Origin: Ilex aquifolium
Lineage: Eukaryota > Streptophyta > Magnoliopsida > Aquifoliales > Aquifoliaceae
Assembly: GCA_951799425.1 (NCBI GenBank)
Contig: OX637392.1
Coordinates: forward strand, 34,680,093-34,744,092
Reading direction: 5' to 3'
DNA length: 64,000 nt
Below the pieces are notes generated by a model. The model saw only the letters and a program-made list of their open reading frames with translations. It did no database searches and had not been told where the DNA came from. Shown one piece after another: positions 30,745 to 64,000 of this stretch (the first letter of the stretch is position 1; each line of letters opens with the position of its first letter). The position numbers and the translations under genes were made by a program.

Positions 30745-30916
30745 TGTTAAGTGTAGAAGATTAACATAATATATTGGAGAGGAACAAAGAGAGGTCAAAA
30801 ACTTAACCTAGCTCTCATACATCACTTGTATTTATAGTTAACACACAATAATAAGAATTACACATACACCCTCTTACTATTAACAATTTACACATACTAC
30901 CCTAATATTCTTAACA
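30745..30916 (-). mobile_element. 3' LTR of copia element H
   Basis: 172 bp, TGTTAAG..CTTAACA. It matches 47970-48141 except for one A/G difference (GGAACAAAGAG versus GGAACAGAGAG). On the minus strand it is preceded by the purine tract GAGGAGGAG. Confidence 0.95.
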
Positions 30917-32343: not shown

Positions 32344-32348
32344 GTAAC

Positions 32349-34184
32349 TGACTTGATCCGAAATGTGTACACCCAAGTGCAGGCGGTCAAGTTGTAGTAA
32401 TAATCTGGTTTGAGTCCAGAGTCGAATCCTCAGGGAACTATGGTTGGTGTTCTTTGAAGTAAATAGTGAGAAAGACTTGTAACTGGAAATATTATGATTT
32501 TGAAGTTGTGGGAAGTTTTGGATAGAATGTAAAATTCTTTCCAATGGGTATTTTTCTAGACAAAATATAAGATGATTAAATGTAACAAACACTCTTTGGT
32601 TCGGGAATCAGAATATGTAGTTGATTATCCGGTGCATTATGTTTATGCTTTATAACTCAATTAACTCCCGTGTCAACGGCAAATTAATCGGAAGATAGGA
32701 ATGAAGTGCAATAATTGTGGACATTGAAAGTTTGTCATGAAGAGTTAGTTAGGGTACTTGCCTTGAATCAATGGATCTTTCCATGTAGGAGTCATCCATT
32801 TATCATAGAAAGATCCGTTGATTATACAAAGTACCTTTACTTTGCTAGGTGCATTCAATCACCCAAAAATCAAGTGGAGTATAGAACATTTAAGCATAAA
32901 TGTGATACACAAACATAATGTCCGGATTAATCTTTTACATATCTATCATCCCTTCCCAAAGAGTGAATGAGGACTACTCACCCTTCATAGCTATGGTAAA
33001 GCTAGAATGATGAATGGTACTCATCCCCAAAAGGTGTTACAAAGTAAAATGCTCAAGCACTAAAAGTGAAATGCTTTAAAGTAAAATAGCTAAACAAGGA
33101 GCCGATCTTCGACAAAGAATGAGTGAATCACGTTCCACCCTTCACGGCTTTGGTAAAGCTCTAGAAAAGTGGAAGAGTTTCACTCCTCTAAGGGGAAGAA
33201 GGAAGCTCCAACAATGGAAGTAAAAGAAAACAATACTTAAATTAAAAGAAAGCAATAAATACTTGGTGTTTAATCCACAACCAAGAGATGATAATACATA
33301 AAAGAAAACAACAACTTCTTGGTGTTTAATCCACAACCAAGATATAATAAAAACATAAAAGAAAACAATAACTTCTTGGTGTTTAATTCACAACCAAGAT
33401 CTAATAAAAAGAAAACAATAACTCAAGAAAGTAAATAAAGCAATAATACTTGAAAGATGATTCAAGAAAAAGAAAACAATAACTTCTTGGTGTTTAATTC
33501 ACAACCAAGATCTAATAAAAAGAAAACAATAACTCAAGAAAGTAAATAAAGCAATAATACTTGAAAGATGATTCAAGAAAAAGATTCAAGACCTTTGGAG
33601 TGTTTTCCACTAGGAAGAAATGTTCTTTACAAGAAAAATGAAACAAGAGAAGGATGCCCATTACAAGCCCCCAAGGGGGGTATTTATAGGCATCCAAATT
33701 ACAAATATCCTAAAAGATATTTATCCTAAAATATATTTAATTACAAATATCCTAAAAGATATTTATCCTAAAAGATATTTAATTACAAATATCCTAAAAG
33801 ATATTTATCCTAAAAGATATTTAATTACAAATATCCTAAAAGATATTTATCCTAAAAGATATTTAATTACAAATATCCTAAAAGATATTTATCCTAAAAG
33901 ATATTTAATTACAAATATCAAGAAGATCTTGATTTACACTTTGATCTCCCTTTGTTTTGAGCTTTAATAATTTACACCCTATGCTTTGATAAGTTGCTCT
34001 CCATGCTTTGATAATTGGCTCCCGTCGTTTTGACGCATAAAAACCTGAAAAGAACAACATTCAATGCATTATCCTTAATTCACACATTAACCCTAATTAG
34101 ATTTATTTTGACTAGTTTAACTTTATTTAATTACACAATTGACCTTTTAATTTAATTACATTTTGCATTAATTAGGGTTAATCA
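32349..34184 (-). mobile_element. 3' LTR of the Athila element
   Basis: 1836 bp, plus-strand ends TGACTTGATCC and GGGTTAATCA. It is 49 bp shorter than the other LTR; the difference lies in the repeat block 33240-33560 that contains CTTGGTGTTTAAT. Outside that block the copies look identical by eye. TATA box (minus) at 33681-33688. Confidence 0.95.
33699..33908. repeat. Five 42-bp tandem repeats in U3 (3' LTR)
   Basis: Exact 42-bp periodicity from 33699 to 33908. On the element's sense strand each unit has two AAATATC blocks, mostly in the form AAATATCTTTTAGGATA. The array ends about 10 bp before the TATA box, so it is in the promoter. Unit 1 carries the same one-base variant in both LTRs. 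Confidence 0.95.
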
Positions 34185-34196
34185 CACCCCCCAACC
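34185..34196 (-). promoter_or_regulatory. Polypurine tract of the Athila element
   Basis: Minus-strand GGTTGGGGGGTG immediately before the 3' LTR start TGATTAACCC; primer for plus-strand DNA synthesis. Confidence 0.9.
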
Positions 34197-34990
34197 TAAA
34201 CATTACTAGTCCCTAGTAATAAATAACAGCATAACAAAATCACTTTCGTAGATAACACGATTGCATTTAGCATATGCAATAAGCCGTTAAACCCCTAGGT
34301 GATTCCTAGTGGACGAGTTTTGTCTCGTGAAGGTTTTCAGTGAAGCTACCTACAAACTCCATTGTGAAAAAAAATGTGTATATGCATTAGCACCATGATA
34401 GTTGAAATTTTTTTTTTTTTTTTTTTTTAGAACATAGAACACTTCTCTGTCATTGGTACGTAATATACGCAAAAATAAACACTTGTTATATTGGTATTTG
34501 AAATTCCCTATGTAGTAAGAATGATCATTCTAGCAACAAGAATTGTTATATAACAAACACTCCACTTTACTACCTTCCATGGATAGCTTCGATTTCACAA
34601 ACCTCTCGTAGAATGCTCTCAGCAAAAATTCACTCCGATTATAGTGACTTGTCTCTCACGGGGCATGTGATCAGAAGGTGGCCAATCGAAAAATCACATG
34701 CACAATTAGGAAGGAAGTGAAGTTTACGGAAACAAACTAATCATGTTTGGCATAATCTCATGAAAGAATATTGATGCAATTTAAAGAAATACTATTTACC
34801 ATACCCCAATTTTGATTAACAACACACACATGTAACAGACTTGAGATCAATTAGGGCTTTTCATAGGTTGTAGCGTGGCCAGAGGTCAGTGGCTAATGAA
34901 ATGACGTCAGAGGTTTTCAAAAGCTATCTTTTCATTCTGTAATGTAGCACACTTCTTTCTAGCTTTTCGACATTTTGCCAAGAAATGATT

Positions 34991-35026
<36 letters not shown>

Positions 35027-35636
35027 CATTGATTCTCCTTATCATCGAAAAGTAATCTCCACAGTTTTCCCATTTCTTTGCATTTCTGTGTCATATTAAT
35101 TAATAAGAGTGTGCAAGAAAATTAGATAGCAATGGTGTGTCCAGTATGTTTTCTTGTGGCTTGGTAAATATTTGGGTTTATCAAAGAAGAAATCATACAT
35201 TGAGGGCTCAAACATGGCTGACTAGGGAAATAATTTTGCAGAAAAAATGGCTAAGGCTCAATATCAAATCAAAGATGGCCTAAAATCCTTTCTCAAGTAT
35301 GTGAACATGTATGTGTCGTATGAACAGATTTCTTGGGGATATGTCAACAGATTACCTTAGTTGCGTCAATCAAAGCAAATTTAATGAGATTATTCAAAAA
35401 TAGAGAATGAAAAACCTTACTTGAATAAATGTTAATTATCTCTCAAAAGTATGATAAGGCTCAAAACTTACCATGGTATTCTTTATCATCTCCACTGGTA
35501 ATGTCAGGTTTTTCATGGAATGTCGGTTATATACCGATTCTATTTTTGAGTCTGGTCATTCTTTACCTTAAGAATAACAAATAGCAATATACATTTGACA
35601 TTTAAGCATAGAGAAAATACCATTTTTCAAGGAAGT

Positions 35637-35678
<42 letters not shown>

Positions 35679-36000
35679 AACAAGAAAAATAAAATTCAAA
35701 ATTATAAACATACTCATTTATCTATGAAAATTGAAAGAAGACTAGATGCACCAATTAAACTTGAAAAACTATGGCGTCTCAGGATAAGTCCCTACCCACA
35801 CTACAGGTTGGCATTTTAGGACATTCCTTACTCCGCCCACATACTCATTTATCTATGAGAATTGAAACAAGATAAAATGCACAAATTGAACTTGGAAATT
35901 TATGGCGTCTCAGGATCAAATCCCTACCTACACTGTTAGTTGGTAGTTCGGGACGTTCCTTACTCGGCCCATATTTTTATTTCAACAACCAGACTTTGTA
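34197..36000 (-). other. 3' non-coding region of the Athila element
   Basis: No credible coding frame. It has long T runs on the plus strand (about 34410-34428, 34993-35026, 35640-35674) and the tandem duplication at 35708-35970. It lies between the second accessory ORF and the polypurine tract. Confidence 0.5.
35708..35970. repeat. 131-bp tandem duplication
   Basis: Two diverged units, 35708-35838 and 35839-35970, both starting ACATACTCATTTATCTATGA and sharing ATGGCGTCTCAGGAT and CCTTACTC.GCCC. Phrases in it resemble the C-terminal coding part of the accessory ORFs. Confidence 0.8.
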
Positions 36001-36084
36001 CAAAAATATTTTACAAAAGAGTTCAGACCCTTAACCTTCATTCCAAAACACATTTTTCCACAGCTTTGTTTTTATAGTTAAAAT

Positions 36085-36510
36085 CTAATCCGAGTCATCG
36101 CTTGGATCTATGTCATTATCAGTGACCCTTCCAACTTCTTGTCGCACATAACTTGTAAGTCCCGGACTGGCATAAGATGGTGTGTCAGGATAATCCTTAC
36201 TCAGCCCATACACTATCCAGTTTAATCGATCGGTTGCACGACCCGAAATTGGTTCAGAACACTGATTATGTTTTTTCATATGAAATATCCTGCCACAATG
36301 GTAACAAGCACCCAGTCGTTTGGAACGACGATGTTTAGCAAAATTGCTTCTGCCACACAATGGTTGTTGTTGTTTCTCTCGGATCTCAATTTTTCTCATA
36401 TCCCTTGCTTTTCTCATTATCACAGCATGCACATCAGATGGGAAAATGCGTAGAACTCCTAGACTAAACCAAAAAAGTTTAGGATCCATGCTTGCTAAGA
36501 CTAAAGACAT
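36085..36510 (-). CDS. Accessory ORF b: small basic Cys/His protein, second copy
   Basis: 141 residues, complete. It is similar along its length to accessory ORF a (roughly 70% identical by eye from the MD at residue 8). Order: hydrophobic N-terminus (LFWFSLGVLRIFPSDVH), a basic helix-like stretch (IMRKARDMRKIEIREKQ), PLCGRSNFAKHRRSKRLGAC with the first cysteines, the finger CYHCGRIFHMKKHNQC (C-X2-C-X4-H-X6-C), then the strongly conserved SEPISGRATDRLNWI and GLSKDYPDTP, and an acidic end DPSDDSD. The finger is two residues longer in its last loop than a Gag zinc knuckle. No signal peptide or clear transmembrane segment, so it does not look like an Env. Nucleic-acid binding is likely from composition; function is unknown. 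The layout recalls carlavirus cysteine-rich proteins (inference). Confidence 0.75.
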   Translation of the reverse strand: MSLVLASMDPKLFWFSLGVLRIFPSDVHAVIMRKARDMRKIEIREKQQQPLCGRSNFAKHRRSKRLGACYHCGRIFHMKKHNQCSEPISGRATDRLNWIVYGLSKDYPDTPSYASPGLTSYVRQEVGRVTDNDIDPSDDSD

Positions 36511-37013
36511 TCTATCTGGTTCTTTAACGTCTGCCAGTCACAAAGACAGTTGAAGCTGCATCCGATGTAATCATGAAATACAGGTACAAATACTAAAAAA
36601 AACGCGATCCAAAAAAAATAAATTTTTTTTTTTTTTTTTCAGATCTAAAACTAAAATTACAAATACGAAACTAGAGAAAGTATACCAAAATACAAGCGGA
36701 AGGAAGAAGATTTAGGATGAAACAAACAAATTAACGAAGAAGGAATAAACCCAGAATACATAGGATTGAGGAGGATTATTTGGCAAATTATCAGATCTTA
36801 CTGTAACAGCAATTACAACATAGTCATTGGAGGGCATAGCAAATTCACAAGGAATCTTATAAAGACAAATAGCCATGAGAATCACAAGCTGTAGATATCA
36901 AATTTCAAATATATATATAAATGAAATTACAAACAAGCAATACTTACAACACTAGCACTAGTGGGCTAGTGGAGATAAGGTTGTAAGGTACAGATCTGTT
37001 CATCTGCCGAAAC

Positions 37014-37015
37014 CT
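37014..37015 (-). promoter_or_regulatory. Candidate 3' splice site upstream of ORF b
   Basis: Minus strand TTGTATTTTGTTTGTAG followed by GTTTCGGCAGATGAACAGATCTG. The equivalent place upstream of ORF a has a T-run then GGTATAG and GTCATCGGCGATTGAACAGATCT, so tract, AG and following exon-like sequence are kept in both copies. Confidence 0.45.
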
Positions 37016-37339
37016 ACAAACAAAATACAACAATTACTCAACTCAAGGAATATCTGGGTTTCTCTGGAAACTCCTCATCCTAAGTGTGAGAACACAAAGA
37101 GCACCCAGGTACACATACAAACATATAAGACAAATTATTAAACAAAAGACTGGATCGTCGGCGTATATGGTCATGGATTTACAGGGGGTGAATTGTTTTT
37201 ACAGAGAACAGAAAGAACGACGACGAAGAAGAAGAGAAGAAAAAGAAAGAGAAGAAGATAAGGGAAAGAGAAAAGGGGGGAACCAACACCGGTGATGGTG
37301 GAAGAAAAAGAAAAAGGTGGAAGGCCTAATAAAGGCATT

Positions 37340-37660
37340 CCTCAGATTTTTTTTTTTTTTTTAATATAAGAAAGTGTCGGCAGGAGCTGGCAGGCAGAAG
37401 AAAAGAAAAAAAAGAAGAAGAAAGGCAGTGGGAGGCCCCCCCTTTTTTTTTTCTAACTTTACTTTCGGCAGTGTCGGCAGGCGCAATAATCGCAGCAGGC
37501 GCAATAATGGTGCATAGTAATAAAAATGAGTAGGGTAAGAGAACACCTCGCACTTGAGCTTTGACTCATGCACCAATATCTGAAACTAGGAACAACAAAA
37601 TTATACAACAAAAGAAAGTGATATGCAAAAGAGTTTGTACAGAACATAAAAAAATAAAAT
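37340..37660. other. Spacer between the two accessory units
   Basis: Low-complexity purine and T runs, and repeats of GTCGGCAGG and GGCGCAATAATNG-like words; similar in part to 38820-38870. This is the join of the duplicated units. Confidence 0.4.
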
Positions 37661-37737
37661 AAAATAAAATAAAATAAAATTTACAGACTCGGACCTTCAG
37701 CTCTCATTCCCAACCTCAGTACACTTTTCCACAGAGG

Positions 37738-38169
37738 TCAATCCGATTCCCCCTCCGTATCTGTGTAAAATGGACAACTAGTAACTCTCCCAACTTCCTC
37801 TCTCACAAATCGGTTAAGCACAGTACCGGAATAGCATGGCGTATCAGGGTAATCCTTACTCAGCCCATGTTTTATCCAGTTTAATCGATCGGTTGCGCGA
37901 CCGGAAATTGGTTCAGAACATTTGTTGTATCTTTTCTCATGAAAGTATCTGCCACACTGTTTACAGGCACCAAGTCGTGTAGCACGACGACGTTTAGAAT
38001 AACTGCTTCGGCCACAGAGGGGTTTCGCTTGTTTTTCTTTGATTTCAGCCTTCCTTACTAATCTTGCTTTTCTCATGATCATGGTATGTACATCAGATGG
38101 AAAAGTACGTAGGACTCCTAGACTAAACCAAAAAAGATTTACATCCATGATTGATACTCTATGACCCAT
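37738..38169 (-). CDS. Accessory ORF a: small basic Cys/His protein, first copy
   Basis: 143 residues, complete. It lies downstream of pol with its own leader of about 600 bp. Features: LFWFSLGVLRTFPSDVH (12-28), basic stretch IMRKARLVRKAEIKEKQ (31-47), PLCGRSSYSKRRRATRLG (50-67), the finger CKQCGRYFHEKRYNKC (69-84; Cys69, Cys72, His77, Cys84), SEPISGRATDRLNWI (85-99), GLSKDYPDTP (102-111) and an acidic tail TDTEGESD. Cys52 in the CGRS motif is also kept in copy b. It is not Gag, Pol or a membrane Env. The CGRS-x-aromatic, arginine cluster, then LGxCxxCGR order resembles the nucleic-acid-binding cysteine-rich proteins of carlaviruses (Pfam Carla_C4); I have not been able to test that. Retention of both copies without stops suggests selection. 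Confidence 0.8.
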   Translation of the reverse strand: MGHRVSIMDVNLFWFSLGVLRTFPSDVHTMIMRKARLVRKAEIKEKQAKPLCGRSSYSKRRRATRLGACKQCGRYFHEKRYNKCSEPISGRATDRLNWIKHGLSKDYPDTPCYSGTVLNRFVREEVGRVTSCPFYTDTEGESD

Positions 38170-38362
38170 TATCTGGTTTTTTTACGTCTTCCAGTCACAA
38201 AGACGATCAAAACTGACCCACAGATATTATCATTAATACAAGGTACATAATATGAACAGATACAACAATAAAAACAAAAAAAATTTACAGAAAATTTTAC
38301 GGGTTCAACCTGCGCAGATCAACTACTGTAAACTGCAGATCAACTATTGTAAACTGTAGATC

Positions 38363-38377
38363 TCACCCCCCAACCTA
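38363..38377 (-). promoter_or_regulatory. Internal copy of the polypurine tract
   Basis: Minus-strand GTCTAGGTTGGGGGGTGAG, nearly the same as GTTTAGGTTGGGGGGTGTG at the 3' LTR (34185-34201). It lies 5' of ORF a, about 4.2 kb from the true tract. Confidence 0.6.
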
Positions 38378-38468
38378 GACTGAACATTGTCCCCAATGTT
38401 TCGAGTTTTTCGGTTTGTAGAGCTTGAATACGCAGTTAACTGTGGAGATCTGTTCAATCGCCGATGAC

Positions 38469-38470
38469 CT
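38469..38470 (-). promoter_or_regulatory. Candidate 3' splice site upstream of ORF a
   Basis: Minus strand GTTTTTTTTTTGGTATAG followed by GTCATCGGCGATTGAAC; aligned with the site at 37014. A matching donor was not identified. Confidence 0.4.
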
Positions 38471-38796
38471 ATACCAAAAAAAAAACAGAGATTAAGCATC
38501 TTTGGGGTGGTCTGGGTTTTCATTGGGACAAAAACCCTTGATCATCAGTGCGGCCCGAAGAAGAACAGCCATAAGTAAATAATACAAACAAATGTAGATC
38601 ATGAGAAGGAGGATAGGGTCATCGAAAAATGCAGACATGGTACTGTTATGGGTTGGATCGTGGTACAGAAGACCAGATGCAGTGGAGAAGAAGAAGAAAA
38701 GAGAAGAAGCAGAAGAAGAAAAAGAAAAGAAAAGAGTAAAGGTGTGGTGAGGAAAAGAAAAAAAAGAAAAAAAAAAAAAAAAGCGATGGGAGCCTT

Positions 38797-38810
38797 ATAA
38801 AGGCAGTCCA
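38797..38810 (-). promoter_or_regulatory. Possible internal TATA box before ORF a
   Basis: Minus strand GCCTTTATAAGGCTCCC, followed by a long pyrimidine-rich leader. The copy before ORF b reads GCCTTTATTAGGCC (about 37327-37340). An internal promoter is a possibility only. Confidence 0.25.
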
Positions 38811-39106
38811 TCGTGTCGGGTGTCTGACTGACCCGACCCTTTTTTGTGTCGGCAAGCGTAATCTCCGGAGTGATATCCGGAGATACTTTCTGGATCCATT
38901 AAAAAAATGGTCTCCACATTTTGGACAAAATTCTCCACAAAGGGTTTTAATCTCTGACCATTGACGGTAAAAATGTTACCGTTTGATGGGTTCTCCACTT
39001 TTACTGCCCCATGTTCAAATACCTTTTTAACAATGTATGGTCCAGTCCATCTTGATTTCAACTTACCAGGAAATAGGCGAAGTCTCGAATTGAAAAGTAG
39101 AACCTT
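38798..39106 (-). pseudogene. C-terminal end of Athila integrase, cut off by one stop
   Basis: Same frame as gag-pol, directly after the stop at 39107-39109. It reads KVLLFNSRLRLFPGKL, SRWTGPYIVKKVFEHGAV (the GPY/F module of gypsy integrases) and NGQRLKPF, then an unrelated tail. The TAA is a single base from a Gln codon. Loss of this module would be expected to harm integration unless the stop is read through. Confidence 0.8.
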
Positions 39107-42100
39107 TTAATCAGGTTCAAAAGATTTTCGCACTATGTTCTTGTCATGAAAAATTTTCATCCTGGTTTTTGCAATCTTAGCATTTTCATATGCTTCATTT
39201 CTCAATTCCTCCAATTCATTAATCTGAAGCTTCCGTGACAGTCCAGCCTTGTCTAAGTCAAAATTCATTGCTTTAATAGCCCAGTATGCCCTATGTTCCA
39301 ATTCCACAGGCAAGTGACATGGCTTTCCATAGACTAATCGATAGGGAGACATGCCCAAAATTGTTTTAAAAGCAGTTCGGTATGCCCAGAGCGCATCAGT
39401 TAGTCTTAATGACCAATCTTTGCGATCTGGGTTCACCGTTTTTTCCAAAATTAATTTGATCTCCCGATTAGCTAACTCAGCTTGTCCACTGGTCTGTGGA
39501 TGATAAGGGGTTGCAATTTTGTGAAAAATCAAGTATTTTTTCATTAAATTCCAGAAGGGACGATTGCAAAAATGAGAACCCCCATCACTTATAATGGATT
39601 TTGGAATTCCAAACCGAGATAAAATATTTTCTTTTAAAAACTTGATCACTGTTTGATGATCATTATTTCGGCATGGAATTGCTTCAACCCATTTGGATAC
39701 ATAGTCTACGGCTACTAAAATGTATAGATAGCCAAAGGAGGGGGGAAATGGTCCCATAAAATCGATACCCCAACAGTCAAAAATTTCGATCACCAAAATT
39801 GGGTTTAAGGGCATCATGTTTCTTTTTGAAATGTTTCCCAACCTTTGACATCTATCGCAAGTTACGCAAAAAGCATGGACATCGTGGAAAAGTGTGGGCC
39901 AGTAAAATCCACACTGCAAGATTTTTGCAGCGGTTTTTCGAGATGAAAAATGACCACCGCATGCTTCTGAATGACAAAATGTAATTACCTGTCTACTTTC
40001 CTGAGCGGGGATGCAACGTCTTATGATCTGATCCTTACAGTACTTGAATACGTAGGGATCTTCCCAAAAGAAATTGCGGACCTCCCTCAGAAACTTCTTT
40101 TTGTCCATGGGAGTGAAAAATGGAGGAAGTGTTCCGGTAGCAAGGAAATTAGCAATATCAGCGTACCATGGGGTTTCATCAATCCTGAATAGTTGTTCAT
40201 CGGGGAATTTTTCATTGATTGGCAGTCCATCCTCATGAAATTCATAAGTTAATCTTGACAGATGATCTGCCACCACATTTTCCACACCCTTTTTGTCCTT
40301 AATGACTAAATCAAATTCTTGGAGCAAAAGGATCCATCTCAAGAGCCTTGGTTTGGCATCTTTTTTTGTAAGCAAAAATTTCAGTGCTGCATGGTCAGTA
40401 AATACAGTAACAGAAGAACCAACCAGATAAGATCGAAATTTTTCCAATGCAAATACTACAGCAAGTAATTCCTTTTCAGTTGTTGAGTAATTCATTTGGG
40501 CATCATTTAAAGTTTTACTTGCATAGTAAATCACATGTGGCTTCTTATCTTTTCTTTGTCCCAAAACAGCACCTACATCATAGTCACTAGCATCACACAT
40601 CAATTCAAAGGGTAGAGTCCAGTCAGGAGGTTGCATTATTGGGGCAGAAATTAACATGCCTTTGAGTTTGTCAAAGGATTTTTGGCACGCTTCATTCCAG
40701 TCAAAAATGACATCCTGACTCAAAAGATGACACATAGGTTTTGCTATGGTGCTGAAGTCTTTTATGAACCTTCTGTAGAATCCTGCATGACCTAAGAATG
40801 ATCGAACATCCTTTACAACCCTAGGAGCAGGAAGATTCCTTATCAAATCAATTTTTGCTTTATCAACTTTCATGCCTTCAGACGACACAATGTGACCCAA
40901 GACAATGCCTTGATTCACCATGAAATGACATTTCTCCCAGTTAAGCACCAGATTCGCCTCTTTGCATCTCATCAAAACTTTTTCTAGGTTAGCTAGACAC
41001 AAATCAAATGAGTCACCATATACCGAGAAATCATCCATGAAAATTTCCAAAAAATTTTCGACCATGTCACTGAACAAGCTCAGCATACATCTTTGAAATG
41101 TTGCAGGAGCGTTACAAAGTCCGAATGGCATCCTTTTGAATGCAAAGGTGCCAAATGGACATGTGAATGTGGTCTTTTCTTGGTCATTCAGAGCTATCTC
41201 AATTTGATTGTATCCGGAATACCCATCCAGGAAACAGTAAAATTCATGGCCTGCTATTCTCTCGAGGACTTGGTCAAGGAAGGGAAGAGGAAAATGGTCT
41301 TTTCTAGTCACCAGATTGAGTTTTCGATAGTCAATGCACATTCGCCATCCTGTGACGACTCGTGTTGGCACGAGTTCATTTGCATCATTTTTGACTACTG
41401 TGACTCCAGATTTCTTTGGTACAACTTGGGTTGGACTAACCCATTTGCTATCGGAGATAGGAAAAATTATCCCTGCATCCAGGAGTTTGAGCACTTCCAG
41501 TCTCACAACCTCTTTCATGTGAGGATTCAATCGTCGCTGCATTTGACGAGAGGGTTTTGAGTCCTCTTCAAGGTATATGGCATGATTACAAATTAACGGG
41601 CTTATACCTTTCAAATCAGCGATGGTCCACCCAATGGTGCTTTTGTGACTTTTAAGAACTTCAATTAATTGAGCTTCTTGCAAGTCTGTGATTTTTGAAG
41701 AAATTACCACTGGGTAAGATTTATCCTCACCTAAAAATGCATACTTGAGATCAGATGGGAGCGGTTTCAGTTCAGGCTTTGGTGGCCTGTCACTTGAAGA
41801 TAGTGGTTTTGTACCACTTGATGAAATTTCTTCAAATTTAGGAGCCCATGTCCCCACATTGAAGGTAGGACACTCAATGGAGTTTTGTTCCAGAGAGTCA
41901 GATGAGTCAGATTTTGACAAAGTTGATTCACTAAGATCCTCACAGAATGAGTCATTCAGATGTGCTTGTATTAATGACTCAATGAAATTTATTTCTCCTA
42001 CCTCCTCGTACTCTCTTGGGTGTTTTGCAATGTCAAAGACGTTCATTTCGAGAGTCATATCCCCAAAAGTCAATTTCATAATACCATTCCTGCAATTGAT

Positions 42101-44395
42101 TAGTGCATTGGAGGTTGCTAGAAAAGGTCGACCAAGAATGACAGGAATTGGAGTTTCTGAATGAACTTCTGGATGAGTATCTAGAACAATGAAGTCTACA
42201 GGGAAGACAAAATTATCCACTTGAACAAGTACATCTTCAACAATACCCCTAGGAATTTTTACAGATCTATCTGCCAATTGGAGTGTGGTGCAAGTGGGTT
42301 TCAGTTCACCTAAACCCAACTGCTGGTAGACAGAGAAAGGAAGCAAGTTGACACTAGCTCCAAGGTCTAACAATGCTTGCTCAATTTTGAAATTTCCAAT
42401 GACACATGACACAGTGGGGCATCCTGGATCTTCGCACTTTGAAGGAATTTTTTGTTGAAGTAGGGCACTGGCTTGTTCTGTGAAGAAGGCTCTTTTTTGA
42501 ACATTTTGGCTTCTTTTGACTGTGCACAAGTCTTTTAGAAACTTGGCATAAGCTGGAACCTGTTGGATTGCATCCAGAAGTGGGATGTTGATTTTTACTT
42601 GCTTGAAAAGCTCGTAAATTTCAGACTGATTGTTTGCTTTCTGTATGCTCTTGAGTCTATGAGGGAAAGGAGCAGGAATAGAACACGAGGGTTCTTCTTC
42701 CCTTGATGGCTCTGGTTCTTGTTCAATCATGGGATCACAGTCATTTTTTTTTTCAAGTTCTGGCTCACTTAATGGGTTGGCTGGAATTGAGACTGGTTTT
42801 GGGTCTGGAATCAGCATGTTTCTGATGGACTTGTCAATCTTTTTGCCACTTCTCAATGTGGTGACAGTTTTGGCTTGGTCTTGTGGAGTTTCCATAGTTG
42901 ATGGATTTCCCACCTGAAATTGGCCTTGTGGAGGCTTTGGTTGGGCAGGAAATTTTCCCTTCTCATGTGTGCTCATGGACTGGGTCAGCTTTTGAATGTG
43001 GCCTTTGAGATCCTCAAAAGATTGTGTGGTCTGGGCCTTGAAATCAATAAAAGCCTGAGTAGAACTATTGTTATAGCTCATTTGCGTTTGCATGAATTGA
43101 TTCAATGTATCTTCAAGGTTCCTTTTGTGTGGTGGTTGATATGGAGGATATTGTGGAGGTCCTTGAGGTGGTTGTGGTGGCCCTTGTGGATGAGGATATT
43201 GTGGAGGTCCTTGAGGTGGTTGTTGTGGACTTTGTTGCTGATTCATGGGGGTTGGTTGTGTGTTTCTCCAACTGAAATTTGGGTGGTTCCGCCACCCTGG
43301 ATTGTATGTTTCAGAGTATGGGTTGGAGTAAGGCTTGTTGAAATTGGAAATGGCATTTGTTTGTTCCAACAAAACTTCTTTGAATGCCGGAATGGTCGGG
43401 CATTCCCCAGTAGGATGCCCTGTTAGTGCACAAATCCCACACACTTGTTCTGTGGGAGGGACAACATCAACTTGATGGACCTTTTTCATCTCTAAAGCTT
43501 CAAGCTTTCGAGACAAAGTGGACATTTTTGCTCTAAGATCATCATCTTCTCTCAAGACATACTTACCCCCTTGGAAAGTAGGTGGTTTGGCTTCTACAGT
43601 GGTAGGAGATGCTGAGTCCCACATTTGAGAACTGTCAGATATGGTATCAAAAAAATTGAATGCCTCCTCCGGACTTTTTCCCATGAACTCTCCTTGAGCC
43701 ATCATTTCGACAAACTGTCGTAACCTAGTGGGCAAGGAGTCATAGAAAAATCCTACCAAAGTCCAATTTTCAAAAGCATGGTGTGGACAAGATTGGAGAA
43801 GATCTTTGAATCTCTCCCAGCTTTGATAAAAAGTTTCCCCTTCTTTGATCGAAAAATTCATGATTTGTCTTTTGAGTGTATTAGTGCGGTGCAGAGGAAA
43901 GAATTTTCTGAAAAATTCATTCTGTAGAGCCTGCCAATTAGGGATTGAAAGAGATTTTAAAGAATGTAACCATTGTTTGGCTTTATCCCTCAAAGAGAAA
44001 GAAAACAATTTCATTTTTGTCAATTCAGAATTGTCTTGAAATGTTCCACACACTTCTTCGAAGTCTTTGATATGCAGATACGGATTTTCTGCATCCGATC
44101 CATGAAACACGGGCAATAACTGCACTGTCCCCGGCTTTACAGTAAAGAGGGGAGCATTTTCAGGAAAAATAAAACAAGAGGGGACACTATTCCTTGTGGG
44201 ATGTAAGTAATCTCGCAATGTTCGAATGTTGGGTACTTCCCCCTCTCTCACATGATCTTCACCCTGCCTGTCAATATTTGCCATATTGAAGTTACAAGAA
44301 TCGGCTTCTGATTTGGGTGAAAGTGGTTCAAGTTGATTTACAGACCCAGAAGATTCAGCAGGCAAATTTTGAAAGAGGCGATTGGTGTCAGTCAT
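39107..44395 (-). CDS. gag-pol: Athila-type Gag-Pol polyprotein
   Basis: 1762 codons in one frame. Gag: core [20 protein letters not shown] (about 140-165), zinc knuckle [14 protein letters not shown] (about 318-331), Pro/Gln-rich spacer. Protease: [12 protein letters not shown] (about 670), the DLG variant usual in Athila. Reverse transcriptase: [23 protein letters not shown]-like and catalytic FMDDFSVYG (about 1119). RNase [17 protein letters not shown] (about 1268) and [10 protein letters not shown]. Integrase: HHCC finger ending CVTCDRCQR (about 1475-1515), catalytic Asp in GIDFMGP (about 1544) and SDGGSHF (about 1601), Glu in [10 protein letters not shown]. It copies and integrates the element. 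One stop (TAA, 39107) removes the GPY/F module; otherwise all catalytic residues are present. The start chosen is the first ATG after the leader; gag and pol are not separated by a frameshift. Confidence 0.95.
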
Positions 44396-44498
44396 AAAAC
44401 AAAATTATTCACAATAAGGCAAAAATATAAACAAAAAGAGAGGTTTTTTTTTTTTTTTTTGGTTCACTTTTTTTCTAAAAAAAACACCTTTTATGATT
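44396..44498 (-). other. Short leader of the Athila element
   Basis: About 100 bp between primer site and the gag start, with an A-rich run on the minus strand. No upstream ORF of note. Confidence 0.6.
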
Positions 44499-44515
44499 CC
44501 CCGGCAACGGCGCCA
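44499..44515 (-). promoter_or_regulatory. Primer binding site, tRNA-Asp
   Basis: Minus-strand TGGCGCCGTTGCCGGGG, complementary to the 3' end of plant tRNA-Asp (CCCCGGCAACGGCGCCA), 6 bp inside the 5' LTR. This primer is usual for Athila elements. Confidence 0.95.
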
Positions 44516-44521
44516 AAAACT

Positions 44522-46406
44522 TGACTTGATCCGAAATGTGTACACCCAAGTGCAGGCGGTCAAGTTGTAGTAATAATCTGGTTTGAGTCCAGAGTCGAAT
44601 CCTCAGGGAACTATGGTTGGTGTTCTTTGAAGTAAATAGTGAGAAAGACTTGTAACTGGAAATATTATGATTTTGAAGTTGTGGGAAGTTTTGGATAGAA
44701 TGTAAAATTCTTTCCAATGGGTATTTTTCTAGACAAAATATAAGATGATTAAATGTAACAAACACTCTTTGGTTCGGGAATCAGAATATGTAGTTGATTA
44801 TCCGGTGCATTATGTTTATGCTTTATAACTCAATTAACTCCCGTGTCAACGGCAAATTAATCGGAAGATAGGAATGAAGTGCAATAATTGTGGACATTGA
44901 AAGTTTGTCATGAAGAGTTAGTTAGGGTACTTGCCTTGAATCAATGGATCTTTCCATGTAGGAGTCATCCATTTATCATAGAAAGATCCGTTGATTATAC
45001 AAAGTACCTTTACTTTGCTAGGTGCATTCAATCACCCAAAAATCAAGTGGAGTATAGAACATTTAAGCATAAATGTGATACACAAACATAATGTCCGGAT
45101 TAATCTTTTACATATCTATCATCCCTTCCCAAAGAGTGAATGAGGACTACTCACCCTTCATAGCTATGGTAAAGCTAGAATGATGAATGGTACTCATCCC
45201 CAAAAGGTGTTACAAAGTAAAATGCTCAAGCACTAAAAGTGAAATGCTTTAAAGTAAAATAGCTAAACAAGGAGCCGATCTTCGACAAAGAATGAGTGAA
45301 TCACGTTCCACCCTTCACGGCTTTGGTAAAGCTCTAGAAAAGTGGAAGAGTTTCACTCCTCTAAGGGGAAGAAGGAAGCTCCAACAATGGAAGTAAAAGA
45401 AAACAATACTTAAATTAAAAGAAAGCAATAAATACTTGGTGTTTAATCCACAACCAAGAGATGATAATACATAAAAGAAAACAACAACTTCTTGGTGTTT
45501 AATCCACAACCAAGATATAATAAAAACATAAAAGAAAACAATAACTTCTTGGTGTTTAATTCACAACCAAGATCTAATAAAAAGAAAACAACAACTTCTT
45601 GGTGTTTAATCCACAACCAAGATATAATAAAAACATAAAAGAAAACAATAACTTCTTGGTGTTTAATTCACAACCAAGATCTAAAACATAAAAGAAAACA
45701 ATAACTTCTTGGTGTTTAATTCACAACCAAGATCTAATAAAAAGAAAACAATAACTCAAGAAAGTAAATAAAGCAATAATACTTGAAAGATGATTCAAGA
45801 AAAAGATTCAAGACCTTTGGAGTGTTTTCCACTAGGAAGAAATGTTCTTTACAAGAAAAATGAAACAAGAGAAGGATGCCCATTACAAGCCCCCAAGGGG
45901 GGTATTTATAGGCATCCAAATTACAAATATCCTAAAAGATATTTATCCTAAAATATATTTAATTACAAATATCCTAAAAGATATTTATCCTAAAAGATAT
46001 TTAATTACAAATATCCTAAAAGATATTTATCCTAAAAGATATTTAATTACAAATATCCTAAAAGATATTTATCCTAAAAGATATTTAATTACAAATATCC
46101 TAAAAGATATTTATCCTAAAAGATATTTAATTACAAATATCAAGAAGATCTTGATTTACACTTTGATCTCCCTTTGTTTTGAGCTTTAATAATTTACACC
46201 CTATGCTTTGATAAGTTGCTCTCCATGCTTTGATAATTGGCTCCCGTCGTTTTGACGCATAAAAACCTGAAAAGAACAACATTCAATGCATTATCCTTAA
46301 TTCACACATTAACCCTAATTAGATTTATTTTGACTAGTTTAACTTTATTTAATTACACAATTGACCTTTTAATTTAATTACATTTTGCATTAATTAGGGT
46401 TAATCA
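44522..46406 (-). mobile_element. 5' LTR of the Athila element
   Basis: 1885 bp, same ends as the other LTR. It has extra copies of the CTTGGTGTTTAAT-containing repeat (45430-45740). TATA box at 45903-45910 (minus), U3 about 495 bp. Confidence 0.95.
45921..46130. repeat. Five 42-bp tandem repeats in U3 (5' LTR)
   Basis: Same five units as at 33699-33908, including the variant first unit, so the array predates this insertion and was copied by reverse transcription. Confidence 0.95.
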
Positions 46407-46411
46407 GTAAC

Positions 46412-47969: not shown

Positions 47970-48141
47970 TGTTAAGTGTAGAAGATTAACATAATATATT
48001 GGAGAGGAACAGAGAGAGGTCAAAAACTTAACCTAGCTCTCATACATCACTTGTATTTATAGTTAACACACAATAATAAGAATTACACATACACCCTCTT
48101 ACTATTAACAATTTACACATACTACCCTAATATTCTTAACA
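47970..48141 (-). mobile_element. 5' LTR of copia element H
   Basis: 172 bp, pair of 30745-30916; followed by the ATAGT duplication. Confidence 0.95.
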
Positions 48142-56212: not shown

Positions 56213-57034
56213 TTAAGTAGAGAACAATTGAGGGTACTTCTCTCGCATCTCTAGCTCTGATTCCCAGGTAGCTTCCTCCACCCCATGATGTTGCCACAAG
56301 ACTTTCACCAGTTGGATAACTTTATTGCGAAGCACCTTCTTCTTGGTATCAAGAATCTTCACCGGTTGTTCTTCATATGTTGCTCCATCTTGAACTTCAA
56401 TATCCTCTAAAGCCAAGACATGCGTTGGATCCGATTGACATTTTCTTAACATTGACACATGGAACACGTCATGTACCCCTGACAACTGGGCTGGTAATCG
56501 AAGTTGATATGCCACTTTGCCCACCGCTTTGATCACTTCAAATGGTCCGATGTACCTTGGAGCTAATTTTCCTTTCTTGCAAAATCTAAACACTCCCTTC
56601 TTGGGTGACACCTTAAGGAACACATAGTCCCCCTCTTGGAATTTCAATGGTCTTTTTCTTCTATCCGCATAGCTTTTTTGTCTACTTTGTGCCGTGCGTA
56701 GTCTTTCCCGGATGAGTTGAATTTTCTCCATAGTCTCCCGAACAATCTCTGGCCCAAACAAGCTACTTTCTCCAGCTTCTAACCAACAAGTCGGGGACCT
56801 ACAGGGTCTCCCATACAATGCCTCATAAGGTGTCATGCCAATGCTAGATTGAAAACTATTGTTATATGCAAATTCCAACAACGGTAAATGATCACTCCAA
56901 CTTCCCTTGAAGTCCAACACACAAGCACGTAACCTGTCCTCCAAAATTTGTATCACCCTCTCGGATTGGCCATCCGTTTGAGGATGAAAGGCAGTGCTGA
57001 AGTGCAACCCTATCCCCATAGCTCGTTGTAGACT
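56213..57034 (-). pseudogene. Chromovirus integrase C-terminal half and chromodomain (element J)
   Basis: Open frame from the integrase core (FHPQTDGQSERVIQ with the catalytic Glu) through WSDHLPLLEFAYNNSF, PYEALYGRPCRSPTCW, KLAPRYIGPFEVI (GPF module), LSGVHDVFHVSML and the chromodomain VIQLVKVLWQHHGVEEATWE, ending YPQLFST. No stops in this part, so it decayed late. Its 5' side is cut at 57034 by the insertion of the next chromovirus in opposite orientation; the first codons of the open frame belong to that LTR. Confidence 0.85.
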
Positions 57035-59356
57035 TGTAACACCCCGCATTTTCTTTTATATATGTATATAGATATATATTAAATAATAGTTGTAAAAATG
57101 TGGATATGTGTAGTGATGGTAGGAAAAAAAAAATAAAAAAAAAAAACTAGAGATGCAAATTAATTTGGAAGTTGAAGTTTTGAAGGTGTGTAAGCTTGAG
57201 AAGAGGGATTAAGTAAGTTTCTAAATGGATTTAGGTCAAAATAAGGTTTCCATTGAGTCCGGAAGGTCGAAAAACCTTGGGAGAGGTGATATGGGGTGTA
57301 TTAGAAGTTAGGAAGTATTTTGGAGTTAAAACACATTTTAGAGAAAATTTGAGTATAAAGGATTTTGGACACTGTCTACTATTTCGATCATAACTTTTTA
57401 TTCCTAACTCCAATCGATCTGAAATTTGGAAAACAGATATTAGACATCTAGGTCTACAAAAGTGTGTCTCATGAAAATTCTCCAATTCGACCTCTAAATG
57501 GGTCAAAACTGCACTTGAAGTTGAAGCATAAAATCTGGGCAGTGACTACCGGTAGTCAACCGGTAGTCAATGGTCCAGTGTGCCCGAGCTACCAGTAGTC
57601 AACAGGTAGTCAAGTGCCCAGTGTACTCGGACTACCGGTAGTCAACAGGTAGTCGAGTGCCCAGAATAGTCGAACTACCGGTAGTCATAGTTTAACTACC
57701 GGTAGTCACTGTAAAAATCAGACAATTTTAGTTCGCGAACAGCCTGTTTTTCCCCCACTATAAATACTTCTTGCCATCCCCTTAGCCTTCATTACACACC
57801 TTAAAACCCTAGAAAACATTAGAGAGAAAGAGGGGAAGATAAAAACACAAGATCAAAGGTGAAAAACAAGGAAAGACAAAGGGTTCACAAGTGATTCAAG
57901 ACTCAAACCCTAGGTTTCTTCAAGAGCTTAAGGTAGGGGTTTTCTTCCATTCTTGTTCATTGATGTTAGGGTTATTATATATATATGTTTTGACTCCTAA
58001 TCATATGTATTTTCTATGGATTCATTGTTTCTTGGATTGCTTGCAATTGTTAACATGTTTTACACAAAGTTAGGGTTGTATACCCATGAAATCTCTCTTT
58101 TGTTTGAAAAACCCTAGTTTTCAAGAGTGATGGGTTTTCCTCTTGAACTCTTCCTTTATTCTTGATTTCAAAATCATAGTGTTTTGTGTTGAGTAATAAA
58201 ATGATATTGTTGGGATCTCTTGCATTTTCTTGGTTGGTTATTGAAAATGTCACATGCTTAAATTGGGGATTTTAAGATATCCTTGTAAATTGTGAAATGG
58301 GGTTTGGTATTGTATCTCTTATGAGTGTGGGAAGACCATGGGTGGCCTTTGACGAGATATCGTAGAGTGGGTAGACGTGTTGCTTGCCCCGTGTGGGTTG
58401 GCATTTCTCCTACCACTCGTAGTGGGGTTAGTGCTTTGGTAAGACTAAACCGCTATTGCTCACGTGTGCCGTGTAAGAGGGTTAGTATACTAATACCTGG
58501 GTTGGATACGTCACTGCCATGGGTATGGCATACGCCCTTCCTAAAGGATGGATATCTTTGATAAGATTTGTGTGGGTGTGTGTGGGCTAGATATTACTCA
58601 ATGTGTTGATTCATGGGGTTTGCCTTACATCATGTTTGAGATACACATACATATGGTTGTGGAATATTCAAGTTATGGATTATTGTATTATTGTGGAAAA
58701 CAGTTTCCTACAAGAACTTGTGGGAGTATGGGATTCCACAAGGTCTTGTGGGAAAATGGTTTATATTTCGGAAAATGGATATGTATTGGATCTTGGTTTC
58801 TTTTACTGTTCATTTGAATTACTGTTACTACTTAAACTTGAGATCCATTTTAAAATGTTCCTGTTTTACTTCAAAGATTATGTATGCTATTTGTAAAATG
58901 AGACCGACCATTTTATATGTTTTTATAAACCTTGTTCGAGTTTGGGAGGAATGTTGCTACGGAGCTTAGTGCTCACCCCCTACCGCTAACATTTTTCAGA
59001 TACGGTGCTAGAGGAGAACCTCGGAGTTGACGAGCAGGGGTATTGGGAGGCCCCATTCGAGGGAAATCTAGATCCCGAGGTGGACATATAGAGACATAGC
59101 TTCCTTTGTAATAGACTTGAGAATTTATTTTGAAATCATGTGAAGTTTAGTTTTCTTTTGTTATTCCGCTGCTAAGTTACGTTTGATCCTTTGAGATGTA
59201 AATGCCATAACTTGGCTTATTCTTTTGGGATGATATTGTAAATTTTATGGATGATGAATGGAAAATTTTTCTTATTGATGGAATTATATTAGTGCTCTCA
59301 TATTGTGAATGGTCTTAGAATGAAATGCCGTCCAGGGTGTGTTTTGGGGTGTTACA
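57035..59356 (+). mobile_element. 5' LTR of chromovirus B1
   Basis: 2322 bp, TGTAACACCCCGC to TTTTGGGGTGTTACA. TATA box at 57759-57766 (CACTATAAATACTT). Cluster of palindromes at 57546-57705 just upstream of it. Confidence 0.9.
57546..57740. repeat. CTACCGGTAG cluster in LTR B1 (5' LTR)
   Basis: Perfect copies at 57546, 57632, 57675 and 57696, one changed to CTACCAGTAG near 57589, and half-sites CAACAGGTAGTC between. Lead-in AAAATCTGGGCAG at about 57529-57541. A further CG-centred palindrome GTTCGCGAAC is at 57731-57740. TATA follows 19 bp later. Confidence 0.9.
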
Positions 59357-63171: not shown

Positions 63172-63184
63172 AAGGGGGGTGGAT
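63172..63184 (+). promoter_or_regulatory. Polypurine tract of chromovirus B1
   Basis: AAGGGGGGTGGAT directly before the 3' LTR. Confidence 0.9.
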
Positions 63185-64000
63185 TGTAACACCCCGCATT
63201 TTCGTTTATATATGTATATAGATATATATTAAATAATAGTTGTAAAAATGTGGATATGTGTAGTGATGGTAGGAAAAAAAAAAAAAAAAAACTAGAGATG
63301 CAAATTAATTTGGAAGTTGAAGTTTTGAAGGTGTGTAAGCTTGAGAAGAGGGATTAAGTAAGTTTCTAAATGGATTTAGGTCAAAATAAGGTTTCCATTG
63401 AGTCCGGAAGGTCGAAAAACCTTGGGAGAGGTGATATGGGGTGTATTAGAAGTTAGGAAGTATTTTGGAGTTAAAACACATTTTAGAGAAAATTTGAGTA
63501 TAAAGGATTTTGGACACTGTCTACTATTTCGATCATAACTTTTTATTCCTAACTCCAATCGATCTGAAATTTGGAAAGAAGATATTAGACATCTAGGGCT
63601 ACAAAAGTGTGTCTCATGAAAATTCTCCAATTCGACCTCTAAATGGGTCAAAACTTCACTTGAAGTTGAAGCAGAAAATCTGGGCAGTGACTACAGGTAG
63701 TCAACCGGTAGTCAATGGTCCAGTGTGCCCGAGCTACCGGTAGTCAACAGGTAGTCAAGTGCCCAGTGTACTCGGACTACCGGTAGTCAACAGGTAGTCG
63801 AGTGCCCAGAATAGTCGAACTACCGGTAGTCATAGTTTAACTACCGGTAGTCACTGTAAAAATCAGACAATTTTAGTTCGCGAACAGCCTGTTTTTCCCC
63901 CACTATAAATACTTCTTGCCATCCCCTTAGCCTTCATTACACACCTTAAAACCCTAGAAAACATTAGAGAGAAAGAGGGGAAGATAAAAACACAAGATCA
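63185..64000 (+). mobile_element. 3' LTR of chromovirus B1, cut by window end
   Basis: Same sequence as 57035-57860 apart from a shorter A-run and a few substitutions. In its palindrome cluster the first copy is CTACAGGTAG (perfect in the 5' LTR), while the copy at 63734 is perfect where the 5' LTR has CTACCAGTAG. Confidence 0.9.
63692..63850. repeat. CTACCGGTAG cluster in LTR B1 (3' LTR)
   Basis: Perfect copies at 63734, 63777, 63820 and 63841, one changed copy at 63692. Lead-in AAAATCTGGGCAG just upstream. Confidence 0.9.

What the first reader, a model, noticed from the sequence alone, without database searches (positions are those of the whole stretch)
36085..38169. Tandem pair of an unrecognised Cys/His accessory gene in an Athila-type retrotransposon
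Seen: two complete ORFs (141 and 143 codons), clearly homologous, downstream of pol where Athila relatives may carry an env-like ORF. Both keep PLCGRS, an arginine-rich cluster, the finger C-X2-C-X4-H-X6-C, and SEPISGRATDRLNWI plus GLSKDYPDTP almost unchanged, while other positions vary. Neither has a signal peptide or clear transmembrane segment. Established: Athila-lineage elements can carry env-like ORFs, and Gag zinc knuckles are CX2CX4HX4C, so this finger is neither. Inference: the order CGRS, arginine cluster, LGxCxxCGR resembles carlavirus cysteine-rich nucleic-acid-binding proteins (Carla_C4), some of which are reported to suppress RNA silencing. A retrotransposon with two copies of such a gene could be carrying an anti-silencing module captured from, or shared with, plant RNA viruses.
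Basis: partly seen in the sequence, partly recalled or inferred. Interest (0 to 1): 0.87.

Follow-up and report, generated by a model that had tools for sequence, protein, structure and literature searches.

The report
Virus-type gene pair in plant retrotransposon
A young, high-copy plant retrotransposon carries two copies of a small zinc-finger gene of a family otherwise known from plant RNA viruses, where relatives bind nucleic acid and some block RNA silencing, so the element may carry a borrowed shield against host defence.

Summary
ORFs 37738-38169(-) (A, 143 aa) and 36085-36510(-) (B, 141 aa) lie between pol and the 3' LTR of a 14.06-kb LTR retrotransposon (32349-46406, minus strand, TSD GTAAC). 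Both match Pfam Viral_NABP (PF05515; E 7.3e-11 and 1.3e-12) and Carla_C4 (PF01623) above the curated cut-offs; 0 of 10 shuffles do. This is the nucleic-acid-binding cysteine-rich protein family of flexi-like plant RNA viruses. A and B diverged long ago (dS 0.75) under purifying selection (dN/dS 0.33, 0.20-0.51). All 20 other genome copies examined keep A then B with open frames; at least 150 genome matches to A are 99-100% identical. Fourteen outside relatives over 100 residues form an A-like clade, a weakly supported B-like set and a third, distant clade. Best reading: an RNA-virus NABP gene was captured by an Athila-type element, duplicated and kept as an accessory gene, most plausibly to counter RNA silencing. 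Homology and constraint are shown; capture direction, expression and function are inferred. Ten literature searches found no report of such a gene in a plant retrotransposon.

The parts
32349..46406 (-). whole LTR retrotransposon, 14,058 bp, Athila-type (lineage inferred, no RT tree made)
   Evidence: LTR pair, GTAAC duplication at 32344-32348 and 46407-46411, PBS, purine tract
44522..46406 (-). 5' LTR, 1885 bp
32349..34184 (-). 3' LTR, 1836 bp; differs from the 5' LTR only inside a tandem-repeat stretch
   Evidence: all 17 mismatches and gaps lie in alignment columns 717-814, apart from one boundary column caused by my start coordinate
44498..44515 (-). primer binding site TGGCGCCGTTGCCGGGGA, six bases after the 5' LTR, tRNA-Asp type (tRNA sequence recalled)
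   Evidence: tRNA-Asp PBS of the related Diaspora element in PMC1142308 (passages)
39107..44395 (-). gag-pol ORF, 1762 aa in this copy, ended by a private in-frame stop
37738..38169 (-). ORF A, 143 aa, Viral_NABP family
   Evidence: PF05515 42.9 bits, E 7.3e-11; PF01623 26.3 bits
36085..36510 (-). ORF B, 141 aa, Viral_NABP family
   Evidence: PF05515 48.7 bits, E 1.3e-12; PF01623 23.5 bits
38431..38500 (-). module upstream of A: T-rich tract, AG near 38470, then CGGCGATTGAACAGATCT; possible 3' splice site
   Evidence: matching module upstream of B; AG kept in 21 of 21 aligned copies, window included; no RNA data
36980..37046 (-). module upstream of B: T-rich tract, AG near 37014, then CGGCAGATGAACAGATCT; possible 3' splice site
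   Evidence: AG in 21 of 21; L038 has one change in GAACAGATCT; no RNA data

Best explanation
An ancestor of this Athila-type element acquired the nucleic-acid-binding (cysteine-rich) protein gene of a flexi-like plant RNA virus, probably by template switching during reverse transcription in an infected cell. The gene duplicated inside the element; both copies have been kept and have diverged. They are read in the sense direction after pol, possibly from spliced mRNAs with their own 3' splice sites. The small basic zinc-finger protein most likely binds RNA and dampens RNA silencing, helping the element to amplify. Shown: family membership, position, duplication, constraint, presence of both genes in all 20 other copies examined, recent amplification. 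Inferred: virus-to-element direction, template switching, splicing, RNA binding, anti-silencing action.
For: Viral_NABP and Carla_C4 profile hits above cut-off for both ORFs, 13 of 13 members of the first alignment matching both families at E up to 1, 0 of 10 shuffles. Purifying selection between the duplicates, dN/dS 0.33 (0.20-0.51) at dS 0.75. A then B in 20 of 20 copies, B without indel or stop in 20 of 20. At least 150 matches to A at 99-100% and LTRs differing only in a tandem-repeat stretch, so the carrier amplified recently. Finger complete in 14 of 16 proteins. Flexivirus NABPs rank first in both Foldseek searches, though not significantly. Relatives suppress silencing: citrus yellow vein clearing virus CRP (PMC12172455, abstract and passages), potato virus H CRP (PMC3689765, abstract and passages). 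Plants infected with a virus expressing the suppressor P19 yielded retrotransposon circular DNA (PMC12786186, abstract).
Against: No named viral sequence could be aligned, so the tree is unrooted against viruses and the direction of transfer is open. No expression, splicing or activity data. Models are poor (pLDDT 48 and 45) and no Foldseek hit reaches E 0.001. The finger spacing differs from the carlavirus example C-X2-C-X9-C-X4-C given in PMC3689765. Among young copies B shows no clear constraint on point changes: about 0.5% differences, like the spacer upstream of A, with 11 distinct nonsynonymous and 6 synonymous codon changes in 19 of 20 copies, L038 set apart. I could not test whether elements without these genes amplify as well.
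Confidence: 0.5

Rival explanations
1. A viral NABP gene was captured, but its retained job is another one: RNA chaperone or packaging cofactor, nuclear import of the pre-integration complex, or control of transcription.
For: Basic finger proteins fit all of these; PMC12172455 cites a carlavirus CRP as a viral transcription factor whose silencing suppression is independent of nuclear localisation (reference titles); PMC7264820 proposes accessory nuclear roles for extra ORFs.
Against: The tested relatives repeatedly show silencing suppression, and silencing is the main barrier to plant retrotransposons (general knowledge).
Confidence: 0.3
2. The gene is of plant or retroelement origin and the viruses took it from there; the homology is real but the capture ran the other way.
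For: Direction was not tested; the retroelement family is old enough to hold three groups. A 1991 paper linking viral cysteine-rich proteins to families of cellular nucleic-acid-binding proteins is cited in PMC3689765 (title in its reference list).
Against: Pfam describes both families as viral, and the gene turns up in several virus genera by hit names; sequence similarity to cellular proteins of known structure is weak (eL43 E 0.005 with one sequence; best 0.39, eL37, with the profile).
Confidence: 0.13
3. The ORFs are passengers without function that happen to stay open because the copies are young.
For: Captured gene pieces in retroelements are often passengers; among young copies nonsynonymous changes in B are common.
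Against: dN/dS 0.33 between the duplicates at dS 0.75, with residues 81-112 at pN 0.08; motifs conserved across 16 diverse proteins; no indel or stop in B in 20 of 20 copies.
Confidence: 0.05
4. The similarity to viral proteins is a false match of a basic zinc ribbon, for example of ribosomal eL43/eL37 or Gag-knuckle origin.
For: Single-sequence PDB search gave eL43 at E 0.005; one relative, P0004, is named L37AE/L43A by its source.
Against: Viral_NABP matches span about 110 residues at E 1e-11 to 1e-12; no ribosomal or zinc-knuckle family reached its cut-off in Pfam; the profile loses the eL43 match; shuffles give 0 of 10.
Confidence: 0.02

Closest known systems
Viral_NABP (PF05515) and Carla_C4 (PF01623): cysteine-rich nucleic-acid-binding proteins of flexi-like plant RNA viruses
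   Same: Profile match over about 110 residues above the curated cut-off; basic cluster followed by a Cys finger
   Different: Located in an LTR retrotransposon, present twice; finger is C-X2-C-X4-H-X6-C, whereas PMC3689765 gives C-X2-C-X9-C-X4-C for potato virus H
Env-like and other 3' extra ORFs of Athila/Calypso/BAGY-2 elements
   Same: Same place and sense, between pol and the 3' LTR (PMC7264820; PMC1142308)
   Different: No membrane segment, no match to Athila ORF-1 PF03078, small basic finger protein, in duplicate
Viral genes captured by LTR retroelements: paramyxovirus-like env of rotifer TelKA elements
   Same: An RNA-virus gene in an LTR retrotransposon, downstream of pol (PMC5408684, passages)
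   Different: Here a plant element and an intracellular nucleic-acid-binding gene instead of an envelope gene
[quoted passage not shown]
   Same: Extra domain in a plant gypsy element, of a kind also found in Alpha- and Betaflexiviridae (PMC9289625, passages and section 12)
   Different: Another protein family and function
VANC anti-silencing proteins of VANDAL DNA transposons
   Same: Transposon-encoded counter-silencing, which is the function proposed here (reference titles and a lecture summary in PMC13317346 and PMC12859917)
   Different: DNA transposons, no relation to viral NABPs known to me (recalled)

Membership tests
Viral_NABP (PF05515) | Score above the curated Pfam cut-off (23 bits) | tested here: met
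   48.7 and 42.9 bits; 0 of 10 shuffles match
Viral_NABP (PF05515) | Basic cluster followed by a Cys/His zinc finger | tested here: met
   present in A and B; all four ligands in 14 of 16 aligned proteins, P0011 and P0015 each lack one
Viral_NABP (PF05515) | Nucleic-acid binding and silencing suppression | not testable with these tools
   needs protein and plant assays
Viral_NABP (PF05515) | Place in a rooted tree with named viral members | not tested
   no named viral NABP sequence could be obtained; IMG/VR and GTDB gave no relative
Carla_C4 (PF01623) | Score above the curated Pfam cut-off (20.9 bits) | tested here: met
   23.5 and 26.3 bits; distant relative P0015 misses it with 15.6
Carla_C4 (PF01623) | Carlavirus finger spacing as in potato virus H, C-X2-C-X9-C-X4-C | tested here: not met
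   finger here is C-X2-C-X4-H-X6-C; spacing of potato virus H from PMC3689765
Athila lineage of Ty3/gypsy | gag-pol with RT before integrase, no chromodomain | tested here: met
   Pfam order gag, protease, RT, RNase H, integrase; no chromodomain match listed at E up to 10
Athila lineage of Ty3/gypsy | tRNA-Asp type PBS and 5-bp TSD | tested here: met
   PBS and GTAAC; complementarity to tRNA-Asp recalled, in line with Diaspora in PMC1142308
Athila lineage of Ty3/gypsy | Place in the RT tree | not tested
   no tree with reference elements was made
Athila env-like ORF / Athila ORF-1 | Membrane segment or match to PF03078 | tested here: not met
   Kyte-Doolittle maximum 1.25-1.26; PF03078 not among the Pfam matches at E up to 10

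The most novel reading that the evidence does not exclude
A plant LTR-retrotransposon lineage has domesticated an RNA-virus silencing suppressor, duplicated it into a specialised pair, and owes its recent burst to this borrowed counter-defence: one arms-race gene used by both RNA viruses and retrotransposons.
Probability: 0.4. Interest if true: 0.93.

Novelty: new variant of a known kind. Interest (0 to 1): 0.82.

Why it matters
Extra ORFs of plant retrotransposons are common, but their functions are unknown; a 2020 review says that antisense ones lack similarity to other TEs or viruses and that the roles of sense ones remain unclear (PMC7264820, parts 1 and 2 of 3). Here the kinship can be named by profile, and viral relatives have a tested activity. 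That turns the question of what such ORFs do into a simple bench test, and would tie the arms race of RNA viruses and that of transposons to one gene family.

Tried and rejected
Relatives in IMG/VR and GTDB by profile (22 and 55 pattern matches, none confirmed) and two degenerate IMG/VR patterns (0 matches). PDB by sequence: weak ribosomal zinc ribbons, best E 0.005 with one sequence and 0.39 with the profile. NCBIfam: only matches far below cut-off. AlphaFold models too poor to use as structures; the BFVD ranks are quoted only as a hint. Ribosomal or Gag-knuckle origin: rejected. Chance ORF: rejected. Further decayed NABP copies near 35700-35970: only short DNA matches of 17-31 bases and no profile hit there; left open. 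Prior reports: ten literature searches of open-licence PMC papers. Supplements could not be read, so a supplementary table or figure of PMC9289625 or PMC6317226 could already list the domain.

Not done for lack of answers: a genome-wide look for NABP genes outside this element, for elements without them, and for diverged subfamilies; the whole-genome search answered only once.

My first attempt to hand in this report had malformed fields and was returned; the facts were checked against the calls again before this one. Changes: the copy sample is now described as 20 of the 100%-identity rows, the insertion size in the A-B spacer is corrected, the splice-site position near B is corrected to about 37014, the review statement is limited to antisense ORFs, and missed rows are told.

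Full report
WHAT IS THERE. The window holds an LTR retrotransposon with both ends on the minus strand, 32349-46406, with 1885- and 1836-bp LTRs, a GTAAC target duplication on both sides, a primer site TGGCGCCGTTGCCGGGGA six bases after the 5' LTR and a purine-rich stretch before the 3' LTR. It lies between two 172-bp direct repeats, 30745-30916 and 47970-48141, 99% identical, together with ORFs that look Ty1/copia-like by eye (not tested), so it is probably nested in a copia element. [quoted passage not shown] In this copy it ends early at a private in-frame stop: 19 of 19 comparable other copies have none (L046 of the 20 could not be compared), and the frame runs 103 codons further. Between pol and the 3' LTR lie, in the same sense, ORF A (37738-38169) and ORF B (36085-36510).

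OBSERVATION. A and B are 65% identical in protein. In 200 mononucleotide shuffles of the region the longest ATG ORF on that strand was at most 138 codons, median 69.

IDENTITY. Against Pfam-A, B scores 48.7 bits (E 1.3e-12) and A 42.9 bits (E 7.3e-11) to PF05515 Viral_NABP (cut-off 23), and 23.5 and 26.3 bits to PF01623 Carla_C4 (cut-off 20.9). Ten shuffles of the two proteins hit neither family (0 of 10). All 13 members of the first alignment match both families at E up to 1. Three members of a more distant clade match PF05515 at 6.1e-07, 3.2e-11 and 5.6e-10; one of them, P0015, misses the Carla_C4 cut-off with 15.6 bits. The finger C69-X2-C72-X4-H77-X6-C84 keeps H77 and C84 in 16 of 16 proteins; P0011 lacks C69 and P0015 lacks C72, so 14 of 16 have all four. 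Structure prediction was poor (pLDDT 48 and 45). Even so, Foldseek against viral models ranks flexivirus NABPs first: for A, Grapevine virus D at 37% identity over 89 columns (E 0.084) and sweet potato chlorotic fleck virus third (E 2.3) of 12 hits; for B, a potexvirus, Garlic virus A and sweet potato chlorotic fleck virus at ranks 1, 2 and 5 (E 1.6 to 5.1) of 15. None is significant, and the other hits are unrelated or unnamed. A single-sequence PDB search gave ribosomal eL43 at E 0.005; the 16-sequence profile gives at best eL37 at 0.39.

EVOLUTION. A and B differ at dS 0.75 and dN 0.25, ratio 0.33 (bootstrap 0.20-0.51); residues 81-112 have pN 0.08. Three protein searches returned 15 proteins, P0001-P0015 (11 of 22 candidates, 13 of 794 and 6 of 6), on contigs of at most 3,026 bases whose hosts I do not know. 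The 14 longer than 100 residues (P0013, 73 aa, was left out) with A and B give an A-like clade of 7 (98/95), a B-like set of 6 whose support as a clade is low (41/16), and a distant clade P0012/P0014/P0015 (100/100). If those proteins come from other plants, the duplication is older than the split of those lineages; that they do is inference.

COPIES IN THE GENOME. A search of the 800-Mb home genome with A scored 150 of 4098 candidates; 150 of 150 are 99-100% identical over the full length without stops. This is a lower bound and biased to the best matches. All 20 hold A then B. A is identical in protein in 20 of 20, by choice of sample. B, which was not used for the choice, has 0 indels and 0 stops in 20 of 20; L048 has lost the first ATG but keeps the next one, where 11 of the 14 longer relatives begin their listed sequence. 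In 8 of 20 copies B starts 600 to 761 bases further from A than in the window, so the spacer carries an insertion. Point differences in B, L038 left out, are about 0.5%, like the spacer upstream of A, as expected for young copies; B then carries 11 distinct nonsynonymous and 6 synonymous codon changes, which by itself shows no constraint. L038's B has a run of A-like residues at 56-64, a sign of exchange between the two genes, and L046 has two A copies 620 bases apart. The window element's LTRs differ only in a tandem-repeat stretch (alignment columns 717-814; one further column is a boundary error of mine), so its insertion is very recent.

EXPRESSION. Upstream of each ORF a matching module is found: a T-rich tract, AG, then CGGC(G/A)GAT(T)GAACAGATCT. 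It looks like a 3' splice site; the AG is kept in 21 of 21 aligned copies, the window's included (L038 has one change inside the B module). Splicing to a 3' ORF is reported for the barley element Bagy2 (cited in PMC7264820). There are no RNA data here; this step is inference.

MECHANISM. The relatives are small basic zinc-finger proteins, described as nucleic-acid binding. The protein of citrus yellow vein clearing virus suppresses local silencing, and its finger and nuclear-signal motifs matter for infection (PMC12172455, abstract and passages). That of potato virus H suppresses local silencing (PMC3689765, abstract and passages). Plants infected with a virus expressing the suppressor P19 yielded retrotransposon circular DNA (PMC12786186, abstract and outline). 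A retrotransposon with its own NABP pair would gain most from silencing suppression. I give that about even odds; RNA chaperoning, nuclear import and transcription control are the main alternatives.

PRIOR KNOWLEDGE. A survey of plant LTR retrotransposons names plant mobile domain, Transposase_28 and Athila ORF-1 as the most prominent extra-ORF domains (PMC6317226, passages). A screen of 121 angiosperm genomes reports 15 extra domains; the section that I read names only some of them and no NABP (PMC9289625, section 12). The review of additional ORFs speaks of a lack of similarity to viruses, for antisense ORFs (PMC7264820, parts 1 and 2 of 3). A 2026 review of gene capture by plant transposons has no occurrence of 'viral' in its main text (PMC13317346, term search). 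A known plant insertion of a betaflexivirus gene is a replicase-like sequence in cucumber (PMC3136472, passages). Rotifer LTR elements carry a paramyxovirus-like env (PMC5408684, passages). Ten literature searches (listed under Tried and rejected) found no report of an NABP gene in a retrotransposon; supplements were not readable and most subscription papers are missing, so this is weak negative evidence.

VERDICT. It is a new variant of a known kind: sharing of a viral gene with an LTR retroelement, here an intracellular RNA-virus gene, in a plant, in duplicate. Function and direction remain to be tested.

Noticed in passing
35708-35970: A 144-base direct repeat (81% identical) whose units hold short matches (17-31 bases) to the GLSKDYPDTP-coding part of ORFs A and B; possibly remains of further, decayed copies. 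No profile hit there.
   Followed up: partly
35639-35674: A 36-base A run (in the sense of the element) about 410 bases after ORF B; another of 34 bases at 34993-35026. Whether either is a relic of a poly(A) tail is unknown.
   Followed up: no
L038:2681-3103: ORF B of this genome copy carries A-like residues at positions 56-64, as if by exchange between the two genes.
   Followed up: partly
L046:381-1429: Two full copies of ORF A 620 bases apart in one place of the genome.
   Followed up: no
L032, L035, L040, L042, L044, L046, L048, L050 (A-B spacer): In these 8 of 20 copies ORF B lies 600-761 bases further from ORF A than in the window; the inserted sequence was not identified.
   Followed up: no
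33613-34003 and 45835-46225: Each LTR holds a tandem array that is open as a repetitive 115-aa ORF in the antisense of the element; the LTRs differ only in a tandem-repeat stretch.
   Followed up: no
57034-57855 and 63184-64000: An 820-base direct repeat, 98% identical, around a gypsy-like gag ORF; probably another LTR element cut by the window's end.
   Followed up: no
P0004 and P0013: Both are listed with a longest contig of 2941 bases, one a full A-like protein and one a broken copy, so the tandem may exist there too; the contig could not be read.
   Followed up: no
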